DNA from: Candidatus Omnitrophota bacterium | GTDB lineage: Bacteria > Omnitrophota > Gorgyraeia > 2-01-FULL-45-10 | Reading direction: 5' to 3' | DNA length: 41,177 bases | Assembly: GCA_026387175.1 (NCBI GenBank) | Contig: JAPLME010000003.1 | Span: 1 to 41,177 of the forward strand | Shown here: one piece after another, positions 108 to 5,322 of the stretch | Numbering within the stretch: the stretch's first letter is position 1 | How the letters are laid out: each line of letters opens with the position of its first letter | Position numbers and translations under genes: made by a program | The notes under the pieces: generated by a model | Databases searched by the model: none | The model's input: the letters and a program-made list of their open reading frames with translations, nothing else | Told to the model about the DNA's origin: nothing

Positions 108-3100
108 TTACGCGGCCGTGAGGTAATTTTCAACGATGAGCTTATAACGCTCCAGGAGGCTCTCTGTCTTGAACGGTTCTATGTGTTTCAGATTAAGGCG
201 TATCCGATCAAAAAATTCTATGGTATCTTTTCGGAGATATTCTTCCAGCTCTGTTTCGCTGATCGTTCCCCCATCCATTTTTTCCGGAGGTTCGAAGAGC
301 GTCTTGATATACCGCAGGACACGATCGGCTGAAGAGCCGTCGTCTTTCGCCGCCATGGCCAGAGCAAGTCCCGCCACGCCTTCCAGATGAAGATAACCTG
401 TTCCTTCAAACGCTCCTTTTTCGAGCACAATAAGGGTCGCCAGGTTATTGTTCCTCTCGGCCGAACCCGGCTTCCACATCTCTTTGTAGGTATCTCTATC
501 TAAAATACATACGAGCTTTTCTTTGGAGTAATTTTTATCTTTATTTGTGCTCGATCGGGCGATCGTATCTGGGTCGCACACCTGTATCCCGCTTTCGGGA
601 GTAAGTAAACCTTTCAAATGTTCCGCATCGATGTCATTAAAGAGCTTCTCCGAAATAAGAATAAGCGGTTGAGCGCTTTCGGCGGCAGCCATACGCTCAT
701 TGTGAAGGGATTCCAGATACGCTGGCATCTCATCCCGGACCAGCGTCGTAAGAATTTCTTTTAAAGCATCCGTGGTTCCCTCCTGTACCTGCGCCCCCTC
801 CCTATAAGCTTTTACATGCTCTATGGCCTGCTTCATCCTTATGGGATCGACAAGAGGGCCGATACGACGGCGCAGGGCATCATCCAGGTAAGCGGCGGAG
901 AGGTCTCCCGCCGCCAGATCTTCTTTGAGACGGTCCTGTATCGCAGCGGCCTTCTCCAGGTCGGAAATCAATCCATTGAATTCGTCCCAATAAGGAAACA
1001 GCCCTTGCGAAGGGTTCAGTTCCTGCGTTCGATCGACAAGATTGCGCTCCGTAAGAAGCGCGGCCCTTAGATCGGCAGTAATGTGGGATAGCCTCTGGAC
1101 TTTATCGTTGAATAAGTCGATCTCATCCTGTGACACAGGCCAGACCGTCTCAGAATCTCCCATAGGAAGATAAATAGTGAATGTGCTTCCCTGCCCCACC
1201 ACAGATTCCTCAAGGATAATCTGACCGCCGAGCTGAAGGGCCGCCTTGCGGGCGAAATAGAGGCCGAGCCCCGTGCCCGCAACAGTAGCTCTTGTCGCTT
1301 CAAGCCTGCTCTCCTGTTTGAAAAGATGATCTCTTCTATCGGTCTCTGAAATACCCACGCCTGTATCCCTAACGCTTATCCGTACATATTTCCCGTTTTC
1401 AGCCTTATCGACTGTAACCACAATCTCTTCTCCATCGGGCCGGCTATATTTGATGGCATTTTTTACAAGATCAGCGATAAGCAGAAACTTTAATATCTCC
1501 GGATCGGTGACCGCCCTGACCACAGCATCTTTGTGTATATACGAAACGACAGGTATTCTCAGCCCGCTGGCCCGGGCCTGATTCTCTCCCAGTGCGATGC
1601 TCTTGCCTATTACTTCAATAATATCTATCGGTTTTTTATTGATTTCCTGGGCAATAAGATAATCGGTAAATGGTATCGTCTCTTCGAAGATCGGAAGGTA
1701 TCCGTTAATGTAGAAAGCTGCTATCATTCTTTTCTTTTCTTCCTCCGGTAATTTAGCACCGGCATCGTCATGCTCTTCTTCCAACCAGGTAAAAAATGGT
1801 TTGGGGTCATTTAACGCGCCGGGCGCTGATTGGATTCTCTCAAAAATATCTACATTGTCTTCTTTCCATTCCGATAATGCCCGCGTTATATCCCTGAGCA
1901 ACGCGGGTATCTCTTTTACGTCTTTTTCTATAGATTCGAAATTTATTATGGCCTGTTGATATTCATGATCATTGATAATATCTCCCAATGTCATAAGACG
2001 CTGTTTCTCGAAAAAATATCGAGCGATGACAGCAAACGAATCCGCAAAATCCTTAACCACATTCTCTCGCCCGCCAAAGTGAGCGGCATATACCTTTCTC
2101 GCATCATCCATGGTATCTGCCATGAGAAGGAGATGATAAATATTTATGGTCGATTGAGCGGCGCGCCCAAATCCCGTAATCGTAGCTGTCCGTTCCGAAC
2201 CGTCAGGCGACTCAAGGCTGGAAACATCTCTTATCCGCTCATTAAAATGCGATAGGGCTTTGGATACTCTGACAGCTTTAGACTCTATTTCTCTGATCTT
2301 TTGCTCAGCGTCTCTAATCTTTAGCGCCCGGGCAGGATCGGTTTTCGATAGTCGAGCCGGTGCAACCACCGTCGCAGTTCCCAGTGCATGAAATAGGGCG
2401 GGAAGGCTTTCAACGATCCCTTTTAGTGTCAGAGCAGCAACCGCCTCAATCTTTTTAACCTCTCTGGTATGCGCCCTCAAAGCTTCCAATTCATATATCT
2501 TTTTTGCGGCGGCGCGGGACTGCCGAAAACCTGTCGCTACGGCCATTTCCTGCGCATAGGTAAGGCGGCCTACTACAGCAAACAGGAAGAGCGGCCTCTT
2601 ATAATGATCTATCGCATAGCAATATAATACGGAGTTCCCCTCATTAGGACCATATCCTGTCGGCGCTTTCTTAAGATCGCTACTAAGAAGTTTTTTCGCA
2701 TCCGCGATAGTCTCCGGAAAGTCCTTTACTTTATTGAATAGTCCATCCTCTTTCAGATATTCCTTCTCCAGATATTCGATCAGCTTCTGCCTATCGGATA
2801 TCATCCACATGCCGTCTTTAAATTCGCAGACATCCGGAATTATGATCGGCTCTATTTCATTCGTAACCATCATCATCTCCAGAAGCCGTTTCTCGCCGCG
2901 AAGCGGCTCATTCTTCACCCCGGATGTACGAAGACCGCGCTGATAGCACGGCTCCCACTTGATATCCTGAGCGCTCTTATCGTCCGCCGCCATTATCTTC
3001 TTATCCCTGATCGGAAGATACTGGATCAAGCGGGTGCATCCGCTCGCCGCAGATATCGTATCGATCTCATCCACTACTTTCATTAATGCTTCGTCTATAG

Positions 3101-4511
3101 TAAGTGCCGGGTTAATTGAGTCAATCAGGTTTTTGCTTATTCCGATAAGTAAATCCGGAACCATTCGTTCATCGACAGCGCTATCCTCAAAAAACTCACC
3201 GAGCAGATAAAACTCGCCATATTCATCGTAATATGGGCCTATTATAACTCTCTTCCCATCAGTTGCAGCGGCCACGCTAAGAAGAAATTCCTTAGCCCAC
3301 ATGCAATGATAGTCAAACCTGATCTTTTTTATTTTTTTATCTGTATCGGTGGCGAGGATATCTGAAACGAGCCACTTAAAGAGCCATGTCGCAACACCGC
3401 GATTATCATATAACTTGTTGACCAAAAATTGGTTTATACGGATAGCGTCGCCTTCTATGCTATATGCAATCGTTGCCACTTCATTGCGTTCCGCTTCTAT
3501 CCCCGCCGAGCCGCCGACTTCTGGCTCTTTTCCGGCGGCAGACTGAATAGTAGTCTCGATTTTAAAAAAGTTTTCCGGACCGTCGGGGAAAGTTTTGTGA
3601 TCGCATCTCCACTTATCGTTTTCAATCGGCCCGAGAGGCCCATCCGGTAAGCGGAGCACGACTTTATTCTCACTCACCTTTCCTGACAAAAGGTATGCCC
3701 TCCTGCCGGTGTTATAAGACTTCTTTTTGATAAGATCCTCGACTTCATCGATTGAACAGGTCGACGGATCATTGATTATTGACCAGATAAAATCAAGATA
3801 TTCCACAGAAGCTCTAAACCAATAATCGTCATCCGAATTAACAAGGTTAAAATCTGCCACTCTTTTTAATCCGGCGTCATTCTCCTCTCTCCATAGCCTA
3901 AGCGAGTCAAGCGTTTGCTCCCAGCGCTGCGGATCTTCTCCCATACGAATAAGATCCTGGCGCGCGGTGTTCTTAATATTTTCCGATGGGCTCTCAAGCA
4001 AATTAACAAACTTACTGATTTCCGGATTCTGAACCAGGTGACATTGCTTTGAAACGTATTGTATATCTTTTACGAATATTCTCGAAAGATTTTTATTAAG
4101 CCCTTCAATATGCCCTACCTGCTCATGTCCAGGCCGAAGAAGACGCGAAACATCAATTTTCGCAGGATCGTAGTAATAAAGATGATACCCTTCTGAAATA
4201 TCGATCTGAACATAACCGTTTTCATGCACAAATGGAAACCTATCCTCTGGCCGAAATCTTTTGTTTTCAACCTCAATGATCCGCTGTACAGCGTCCAACG
4301 TCATCACTCCTGAAAGTATATGAGAATATTGGACATGTTCGACTAAATTAATGACGTAAAGGAGATTGGCTCTGACTGCAGAATTTTCGATATTAGAGAA
4401 TGGCTCAGGGGCAAGAGTAGCCTTGTCGCTTGGGTTATTGTTCACATATGCCCAACCGATATCATGCAAGACGAATGACATAATTATAACGAGTATAATA
4501 AGTTTTTTCAT
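108..4511 (-). CDS. Giant exported multidomain sensor-like protein (GNAT-like, GAF-like, histidine-kinase ATPase domains)
   Basis: I place the start at the ATG at 4511, which gives 1467 residues and a normal signal peptide: Met-Lys-Lys, a hydrophobic core, and a likely cleavage after Gly-Trp-Ala near residue 21. An in-frame ATG at 4544 would add 11 residues; neither start has a clear ribosome-binding site. An Ala-Thr-Leu-Ala-Pro segment (31-35) follows the signal. Residues about 340-440 look GNAT-like, with an RGVAT motif near 372. Residues about 455-655 resemble a GAF domain. Residues about 680-765 resemble a kinase dimerisation hairpin, but the expected phosphoacceptor His is Glu (near 701). 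A HATPase_c domain follows, with N-box LVKNAIKYS (about 1015-1023), DTGVGI (1049-1054) and GTGLGL (1079-1084). About 340 further residues are unassigned. No second membrane segment is evident. A histidine-kinase relative is likely, but its activity and cellular side are uncertain. Confidence 0.75.
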   Translation of the reverse strand: MKKLIILVIIMSFVLHDIGWAYVNNNPSDKATLAPEPFSNIENSAVRANLLYVINLVEHVQYSHILSGVMTLDAVQRIIEVENKRFRPEDRFPFVHENGYVQIDISEGYHLYYYDPAKIDVSRLLRPGHEQVGHIEGLNKNLSRIFVKDIQYVSKQCHLVQNPEISKFVNLLESPSENIKNTARQDLIRMGEDPQRWEQTLDSLRLWREENDAGLKRVADFNLVNSDDDYWFRASVEYLDFIWSIINDPSTCSIDEVEDLIKKKSYNTGRRAYLLSGKVSENKVVLRLPDGPLGPIENDKWRCDHKTFPDGPENFFKIETTIQSAAGKEPEVGGSAGIEAERNEVATIAYSIEGDAIRINQFLVNKLYDNRGVATWLFKWLVSDILATDTDKKIKKIRFDYHCMWAKEFLLSVAAATDGKRVIIGPYYDEYGEFYLLGEFFEDSAVDERMVPDLLIGISKNLIDSINPALTIDEALMKVVDEIDTISAASGCTRLIQYLPIRDKKIMAADDKSAQDIKWEPCYQRGLRTSGVKNEPLRGEKRLLEMMMVTNEIEPIIIPDVCEFKDGMWMISDRQKLIEYLEKEYLKEDGLFNKVKDFPETIADAKKLLSSDLKKAPTGYGPNEGNSVLYCYAIDHYKRPLFLFAVVGRLTYAQEMAVATGFRQSRAAAKKIYELEALRAHTREVKKIEAVAALTLKGIVESLPALFHALGTATVVAPARLSKTDPARALKIRDAEQKIREIESKAVRVSKALSHFNERIRDVSSLESPDGSERTATITGFGRAAQSTINIYHLLLMADTMDDARKVYAAHFGGRENVVKDFADSFAVIARYFFEKQRLMTLGDIINDHEYQQAIINFESIEKDVKEIPALLRDITRALSEWKEDNVDIFERIQSAPGALNDPKPFFTWLEEEHDDAGAKLPEEEKKRMIAAFYINGYLPIFEETIPFTDYLIAQEINKKPIDIIEVIGKSIALGENQARASGLRIPVVSYIHKDAVVRAVTDPEILKFLLIADLVKNAIKYSRPDGEEIVVTVDKAENGKYVRISVRDTGVGISETDRRDHLFKQESRLEATRATVAGTGLGLYFARKAALQLGGQIILEESVVGQGSTFTIYLPMGDSETVWPVSQDEIDLFNDKVQRLSHITADLRAALLTERNLVDRTQELNPSQGLFPYWDEFNGLISDLEKAAAIQDRLKEDLAAGDLSAAYLDDALRRRIGPLVDPIRMKQAIEHVKAYREGAQVQEGTTDALKEILTTLVRDEMPAYLESLHNERMAAAESAQPLILISEKLFNDIDAEHLKGLLTPESGIQVCDPDTIARSSTNKDKNYSKEKLVCILDRDTYKEMWKPGSAERNNNLATLIVLEKGAFEGTGYLHLEGVAGLALAMAAKDDGSSADRVLRYIKTLFEPPEKMDGGTISETELEEYLRKDTIEFFDRIRLNLKHIEPFKTESLLERYKLIVENYLTAA

Positions 4512-4836: not shown

Positions 4837-5322
4837 GTGCCCAGAACTGCTAGGGTTTTTATTGAAAATGTTTGCTATCATATAATTGCGAGAGGCAATA
4901 AAAGGGAAGCCATTTTTTACGATCCAACTGATTTTCGCACATACCTTCATTTAGTACACAAATATAAGCTTAAATTTGGTTGCCGTATTTATGCTTTTTG
5001 CCTCATGTCCAACCATATTCACTTGATGCTTGAATCGCCTCAAGGGCTTAAAGCAATGAGCTCATTTATGCATGGCCTTCATCATACTTATGCAATGATA
5101 TTTAACGGAAGATACAAAAGAGTTGGGCATTTATGGCAGAATCGTTACAAGAATCCGATTGTCCTTAAGGATGAATACCTCATACACCTTCTATCATATA
5201 TCGAATTTAACCCTGTAAGAGCCGGACTTGTCAATAAACCGGAAGACTATATGTGGAGTAGCTATAGAGCAAGAGTGCTTGGAGAGAAAAACATTATTAT
5301 AGATGATCTTAGTTCTTTTTAA
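4837..5322 (+). CDS. REP-associated tyrosine transposase (Y1 family)
   Basis: This 161-residue protein belongs to the IS200-like HUH/Y1 nucleases used by RAYTs to cut and join single-stranded DNA at REP hairpins. The metal-binding HxH motif is seen as NHIHL (His60, His62). The catalytic tyrosine lies in the family signature YIEFNPVRAG (Tyr121). The start is GTG at 4837, six bases after AAAGGAG (4824-4830). The gene is alone between inverted hairpins, with no accompanying cargo, and lies opposite in strand to all its neighbours. Length and motif order are complete, so it may be active, but nothing in the sequence shows recent movement. Confidence 0.9.
   Translation: MPRTARVFIENVCYHIIARGNKREAIFYDPTDFRTYLHLVHKYKLKFGCRIYAFCLMSNHIHLMLESPQGLKAMSSFMHGLHHTYAMIFNGRYKRVGHLWQNRYKNPIVLKDEYLIHLLSYIEFNPVRAGLVNKPEDYMWSSYRARVLGEKNIIIDDLSSF

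What the first reader, a model, noticed from the sequence alone, without database searches (positions are those of the whole stretch)
108..4511. Exported giant protein with kinase ATPase domain but no phosphoacceptor His
A clear signal peptide and ATLAP segment precede GNAT-like, GAF-like and HATPase_c domains that normally need cytoplasmic acetyl-CoA or ATP. No second membrane helix is visible that would bring them back inside. The dimerisation-like helix has Glu where His is expected, while the ATP-binding boxes are intact. Either these domains work outside the cytoplasm in a new way, or the signal acts as a reverse anchor. I recall an ATLAP-type segment after the signal in other large Omnitrophota proteins, so this may be a lineage-specific family that carries cytosolic-type domains.
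Basis: partly seen in the sequence, partly recalled or inferred. Interest (0 to 1): 0.6.

Follow-up and report, generated by a model that had tools for sequence, protein, structure and literature searches.

The report
Exported Omnitrophota giant-protein family member
This gene encodes one member of a previously unnamed, class-wide family of very large exported proteins in small, probably predatory Omnitrophota bacteria; members share a special start tag and a special end tag but carry enzyme parts normally found only inside cells, which raises the question of where, and on whose molecules, those enzymes act.

Summary
The 1,467-aa ORF is real and intact, with a Sec-type signal, no second membrane helix and a clean HATPase_c domain (E=3e-20). 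GNAT is weak, GAF is not supported, and 'Glu instead of His' is not established: H708 aligns with a homologue's His in an H-box-like motif. The protein belongs to a lineage family. A conserved, N-in/C-out signal ending [AGST]-[WY]-A (typically DIAWA|YP) heads mostly giant ORFs: 26/26 genomes of its GTDB family and 62/99 sampled genomes of its class match; 109 of 150 listed matches have frames of at least 1,000 aa, the longest 45,379. The extreme C-terminus is conserved too (strand, Pro, helix, Ala-COOH); held-out class members score far above internal windows, and 27/37 held-out ends are Ala versus 2/32 ordinary genes. Between the tags lie swappable, mostly cytosolic-type domains (radical SAM, GGDEF, methyltransferase, SecA-like, HATPase), mostly with intact motifs, even at a conserved rimO-cinA locus. 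I read this as a two-ended export/sorting architecture for giant proteins, probably used on prey or host cells. Export is well supported; CTD sorting and site of action are inferred. Known: Omnitrophota giants. New here: the paired tags.

The parts
108..4511 (-). whole coding sequence, 1,467 aa, exported giant-family protein
   Evidence: contig begins at window base 1, so nothing downstream is visible
4449..4511 (-). signal peptide, aa 1-21 (MKKLIILVIIMSFVLHDIGWA), family motif F-x3-D-[ILV]-x-[WY]-A
4161..4448 (-). N-terminal 'ATLAP' module, aa 22-117, shared with relatives
2412..3926 (-). variable body, aa 196-700; found in only one other genome (G010) of 26 in the GTDB family
3351..3491 (-). 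GNAT-like segment, aa 341-387 (weak)
2220..2558 (-). predicted helical hairpin resembling a DHp, aa 652-764 (low confidence)
   Evidence: mean pLDDT 42.7; about 70-78 only locally
2388..2390 (-). His708 codon, aligned with the His of the G010 homologue's H-box-like motif
2409..2411 (-).
1161..1484 (-). HATPase_c domain, aa 1010-1117, ATP-binding boxes intact
111..719 (-). conserved C-terminal domain (CTD), aa 1265-1467, predicted alpha/beta fold, no close PDB match
111..206 (-). extreme C-terminal motif: short strand, Pro-containing turn, helix, ending ...VENYLTAA-COOH

Best explanation
The protein is one cargo of a two-ended export architecture used across its Omnitrophota class for giant proteins. 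A specialised Sec signal peptide (shown by sequence) sends it across the inner membrane and is cleaved at the conserved AXA-type site (inferred). A C-terminal domain with a conserved Ala-COOH end (shown by sequence) acts as a sorting or processing tag for later steps such as outer-membrane passage, surface attachment or C-terminal trimming (inferred). The middle is a swappable payload: here a weak GNAT-like region, a helical region and an ATP-binding HATPase module of histidine-kinase type. Because this and sibling payloads need ATP, SAM, GTP or Fe-S clusters and mostly keep their catalytic motifs, the payloads most likely work where those cofactors exist outside the producing cell, that is in or next to prey or host cells (inferred; consistent with the published predatory or parasitic lifestyle).
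For: Signal conservation and attachment to giants: 26/26 genomes of the family, 62/99 of the class sample, 109 of 150 listed matches with frames of at least 1,000 aa. In the own genome the exact D-x-x-W-A DNA pattern occurs near an ORF start with a hydrophobic stretch only in four ORFs, all over 1,000 aa. N-in/C-out charge and a single hydrophobic segment in many members of up to 3,737 aa. Cys depletion. CTD conserved at 24-38% identity across genera. C-terminal profile trained on GTDB family f1: 10 of 14 held-out class members rank within the top 3% of 1,111 internal windows (p=5e-13); 27/37 held-out ends are Ala against 2/32 (Fisher p=8e-9). Ends conserved, middle variable at the rimO-[giant]-cinA locus and in a second subfamily. 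Payload motifs mostly intact. A sibling giant carries PG_binding_1, Peptidase_M15_4 and outer-membrane efflux matches, as expected for an envelope-facing protein. Lifestyle: PMC10066038; signalling and methylase domains in Omnitrophota giants proposed as anti-prey: PMC12419801.
Against: No secretion machine was identified that reads the CTD; no protein-level data. Not all members keep the Ala end (10/37 do not) and several long frames lack the C-terminal motif. Some payload motifs are degenerate (HAD DLHGT, P-loop Lys to Arg in cytidylate-kinase-like domains, one GGDEF, one HATPase G1 box), which would also fit binding-only domains. Homology of the CTD between subfamilies rests on weak profile links (best hhalign probabilities 68% and 33%). 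Some held-out ends come from orthologues of training proteins, so the samples are not fully independent.
Confidence: 0.5

Rival explanations
1. A membrane-anchored but cytoplasm-facing sensor kinase: the N-terminal helix is an uncleaved N-out anchor and the GNAT, GAF and HATPase parts work in the producer's cytosol.
For: HATPase boxes intact; histidine kinases with one N-terminal helix are common (general knowledge); H708 is a possible phosphoacceptor.
Against: Charge bias predicts N-in/C-out in almost all members; AXA-type site conserved; Cys depletion; siblings carry cell-wall domains; conserved C-terminal tag.
Confidence: 0.15
2. Exported, but the cytosolic-type domains serve only as binding or structural modules of a surface coat or adhesin, not as enzymes.
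For: Some degenerate motifs; no recognisable DHp in the window protein; giant Omnitrophota proteins have been proposed to form coats or adhesins (PMC10066038).
Against: Radical SAM CxxxCxxC in 3 of 3 checked, SecA-like Walker A, GGEEF, PGGxGT, UDPGP and methyltransferase motifs kept; 63% identity over 1,391 residues between two payload orthologues argues for selection on the body.
Confidence: 0.25
3. The C-terminal Ala-Ala end is a degron (ssrA-like) that removes copies which fail to be exported, or a site for a periplasmic C-terminal processing protease, rather than a secretion tag.
For: Ends such as VENYLTAA and VENYLIAA resemble the E. coli ssrA tail ENYALAA (recalled); Ala-ending tails suit Prc/Tsp-type proteases (recalled); ends listed.
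Against: The lineage's own tmRNA tags end in ALAL, ALPL or similar, not LAA; conservation extends far upstream of the last residues.
Confidence: 0.1

Closest known systems
Omnitrophota giant ORFs (Seymour et al. 2023, PMC10066038; V. archaeovorus 39,678-aa protein)
   Same: Very long ORFs in the same phylum, proposed to act on other cells; the same signal heads frames of up to 45,379 aa here
   Different: That paper describes most giants as poorly conserved, with few annotated domains; the passages read report neither a shared signal peptide nor a C-terminal module
Omnitrophota giant proteins with Lipocone, kinase-receiver, methylase and peptidase domains (PMC12419801, 2025)
   Same: Mixture of signalling and enzyme domains in giant proteins, read as anti-prey weapons
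   Different: No two-ended tag in the passages read; the window protein has no Pfam match above cut-off other than HATPase_c
Type IX secretion cargo (Sec signal plus C-terminal domain, PMC11285876)
   Same: Works like: N-terminal Sec signal plus conserved C-terminal domain on unrelated cargos
   Different: T9SS CTD is a beta-sandwich; the CTD here is predicted alpha/beta with a C-terminal helix and no PDB match. SprA was not found, but no control genome rang, so absence is not shown
Two-component histidine kinases (HATPase_c, e.g. PnpS/PhoR-like)
   Same: HATPase_c with intact boxes
   Different: Predicted exported, no recognisable DHp, about 310 residues between candidate His and N-box, fused to the CTD

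Membership tests
Histidine kinase (HisKA + HATPase_c) | ATP-binding HATPase_c with N, G1, F, G2 boxes | tested here: met
   PF02518 E=3.2e-20, boxes read directly
Histidine kinase (HisKA + HATPase_c) | DHp domain with phosphoacceptor His | tested here: inconclusive
   No HisKA match; genome-derived DHp profile gives no match in the H-box; H708 aligned with homologue's His
Histidine kinase (HisKA + HATPase_c) | Catalytic part in the cytoplasm | tested here: inconclusive
   Sequence-based prediction points to the other side: N-in/C-out charge bias in relatives, single hydrophobic segment; no experiment
GNAT acetyltransferase | Significant GNAT profile match | tested here: inconclusive
   E=0.015 in window, 0.018 in homologue, both below cut-off
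GAF domain | Significant GAF profile match | tested here: not met
   No profile match; fold could not be tested, model unusable
Signal-plus-CTD giant family described here | Signal peptide with F-x3-D-[ILV]-x-[WY]-A | tested here: met
Signal-plus-CTD giant family described here | C-terminal domain ending in Ala-COOH | tested here: met
Type IX secretion cargo | Por-type beta-sandwich CTD | tested here: not met
   No Pfam or PDB match; predicted alpha/beta fold
Type IX secretion cargo | SprA translocon in the genome | tested here: inconclusive
   0 of 26 genomes, but the control did not ring either

The most novel reading that the evidence does not exclude
Omnitrophota possess a dedicated, undescribed export system that recognises a special signal peptide and a special C-terminal domain and delivers giant, swappable enzyme payloads with cytosolic activities onto or into other cells.
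Probability: 0.22. Interest if true: 0.9.

Novelty: new variant of a known kind. Interest (0 to 1): 0.68.

Why it matters
Giant Omnitrophota proteins have been described as poorly conserved and functionally opaque. A shared start tag and end tag would give a simple rule for recognising them in any genome, would define where the payload begins and ends, and would turn the question of what these probable predators deliver to other cells into one that can be tested with reporter fusions.

Tried and rejected
Whole-body structure prediction from a two-sequence alignment failed (pLDDT 42.7) and was not searched for folds. PDB sequence search of aa 196-700 gave only weak matches (best E=0.03) to a transcriptional regulatory protein and a putative peptidase, not believed. 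A DHp profile from kinase segments of the relatives did not align in any H-box region. Profile comparison of C-termini with a global setting was uninformative and was redone locally. The ssrA-mimic idea was tested and weakened by the lineage's own tmRNA tags. T9SS could not be excluded by SprA search because the control was silent. ATP/ADP translocase occurs in only 2 of 26 genomes, so it gives no general support for host dependence.
Full report
Check of the observation. The ORF at 108-4511 on the minus strand is open and intact, 1,467 aa from the ATG at 4511 (1,478 from an upstream ATG). Residues 3-21 form the only strongly hydrophobic stretch; the next best is 1.45 on the Kyte-Doolittle scale, below the 1.6 used here for a membrane helix. 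HATPase_c is the only Pfam family reaching its cut-off; it spans 1010-1117 and the nucleotide-binding boxes are present. A GNAT-like segment is weakly supported in both the window protein and its homologue. GAF is not supported by profile.

The histidine question. It has MHPVGGPL, which reads like an H-box, and the window's FHALGTAT aligns to it in two aligners. Neither is proven, because no DHp is recognisable by profile. The claim of a missing phosphoacceptor should therefore be dropped to 'unclear'.

The family. Using the N-terminus as a profile, every one of 26 genomes in the GTDB family has matches, mostly on very long frames. A 29-member signal profile finds matches in 62 of 99 genomes sampled across the class; of 150 listed matches 109 sit on frames of at least 1,000 aa, 20 of at least 5,000, the longest 45,379 (some frames are cut by contig ends, so lengths are lower bounds). 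The motif is [RK]-x-[IL]-x(6-8)-F-x3-D-[ILV]-[AGST]-[WY]-A, often followed by YP or NP and then LAP or LAVP. Asp was used to select the members, so its invariance in the alignment is by construction, but the profile searches are not limited to it. In the own genome the Asp-x-x-Trp-Ala DNA pattern occurs at a signal-like N-terminus only in four ORFs, of 1,092 to 2,768 aa.

Topology. In 28 of the 29 members scored the sequence before the hydrophobic core is net positive, and in 27 the sequence after it is neutral or negative; small residues occupy -3 and mostly Ala -1; and many members, including one of 3,737 aa with HD, B12-binding, radical SAM and UDPGP matches, have no other predicted helix. 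Own-genome members hold 0.47% Cys against 1.30% in other genes of the window. All this points to export, not to a reverse anchor. These are composition and motif arguments; no dedicated signal-peptide predictor was available.

The payloads. Pfam scans of members show UDPGP, radical SAM, HD, B12-binding, HAD, methyltransferases, ARMT1-like, SecA DEAD and P-loop parts, GGDEF with PAS, PEP-utilising enzyme, LOG-type lysine decarboxylase, GNAT, nucleotidyl transferase, cytidylate kinase and several HATPase domains, next to HEAT and TPR repeats. Most catalytic motifs are intact (CxxxCxxC three times, RYGGEEF, RTGGGKT, PGGFGTMDE, QDKGVG, LAGGRGKRMG), but some are degenerate (DLHGT; GSGR for GSGK; KGDEF; NNSVE). 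The 11,305-aa own-genome giant also carries PG_binding_1, M15 peptidase, glycoamylase and OEP matches.

The C-terminus. The last ~200 residues of the window protein are matched in 20 of 26 family genomes (a few only partially), with only weak partial matches elsewhere in the class. The predicted fold is alpha/beta with mean pLDDT 84 and no PDB match better than E=0.14. Other subfamilies have their own, BLAST-unrelated ends, yet these look alike at the extreme C-terminus: a short strand, a Pro, often an Asp, then a helix and Ala-COOH. Local profile comparison links the window's CTD to one subfamily (E=5e-4) and a second subfamily to the 11,305-aa giant (E=5e-5), both running to the last residue or next to it. 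A profile trained on the last 45 residues of 26 members of the GTDB family was tested on held-out proteins: 10 of 14 unmasked class members rank in the top 3% of 1,111 internal 45-residue windows (p=5e-13), and 10 of 16 complete giants within the top 4% (p=4e-11). Of 37 held-out ends, 27 are Ala, against 2 of 32 ordinary window genes (Fisher p=8e-9). Several held-out sequences are orthologues of training ones, so these p-values are optimistic, but the class-level set is from other families.

Ends fixed, middle free. Members with the window-type CTD sit next to rimO, cinA or both in G000 (C8 copy), G001, G008, G012, G015 and G016 (both genes seen in G000 and G016). The proteins there range from 1,092 to 3,533 aa and share the two ends while payloads differ (LOG in G001, GNAT in G016, methyltransferases in G015, TPR in G012). 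A second subfamily shows the same (L120, L120b, L133, L135, L136: same ends, B12-radical SAM-UDPGP or HEAT/GNAT in the middle). The window's own body occurs in only one other genome of 26 and in none of its three same-genus genomes; the gene has lower GC3 than its neighbours (0.48 against 0.60) and an IS200-type transposase lies next to it, which fits a mobile or recently acquired payload.

How it most likely works. Shown by sequence: special signal, special CTD, swappable payload, intact ATP-binding module. Inferred: signal cleavage, a role of the CTD in a later sorting or processing step, and action on another cell. The last inference rests on the need of the payloads for ATP, SAM, GTP and Fe-S clusters, and on published evidence that Omnitrophota are predators or parasites (PMC10066038) and that their giant proteins may be anti-prey weapons (PMC12419801). 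It remains possible that the payloads are non-catalytic scaffolds, or that the protein faces the cytoplasm after all.

Known versus new. Giant Omnitrophota proteins and their odd domain mixtures are known. Paper searches and the passages read gave no description of a shared signal motif or of the C-terminal module; the key preprint on giant genes (West-Roberts et al. 2023, cited in PMC12057145) was not held and could not be checked, so priority is not certain.

Noticed in passing
L238 (own genome C12:227582-227995) and L222-L237: tmRNA genes of this lineage are predicted to encode unusually long tags of about 31 aa (own: ADNFNVPATVDQLLATMQVVPGPVLPVALAL), against about 10 aa in E. coli; ARAGORN's frame call varies between genomes.
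   Followed up: partly
window 4837-5322 (+): IS200-type Y1 transposase gene directly upstream of the giant gene.
   Followed up: no
L118:14 to L119:14128 (own genome C12, 11,305 aa): Giant exported protein with SecA DEAD, P-loop and cross-linking parts plus PG-binding, M15 peptidase, glycoamylase and OEP matches; ends YRNAVNAIRTAA. Possible relatives of 10,000-12,000 aa occur in G001, G002, G006 and G018.
   Followed up: partly
G012:C70 (L049, L050), own genome C12:147000-164500 (L120): Tandem arrays of signal-bearing giant genes, three in a row.
   Followed up: no
G047:C1:1156739: Signal-bearing frame of 45,379 aa in a single-contig genome; its C-terminus (L202) lacks the Ala motif.
   Followed up: partly
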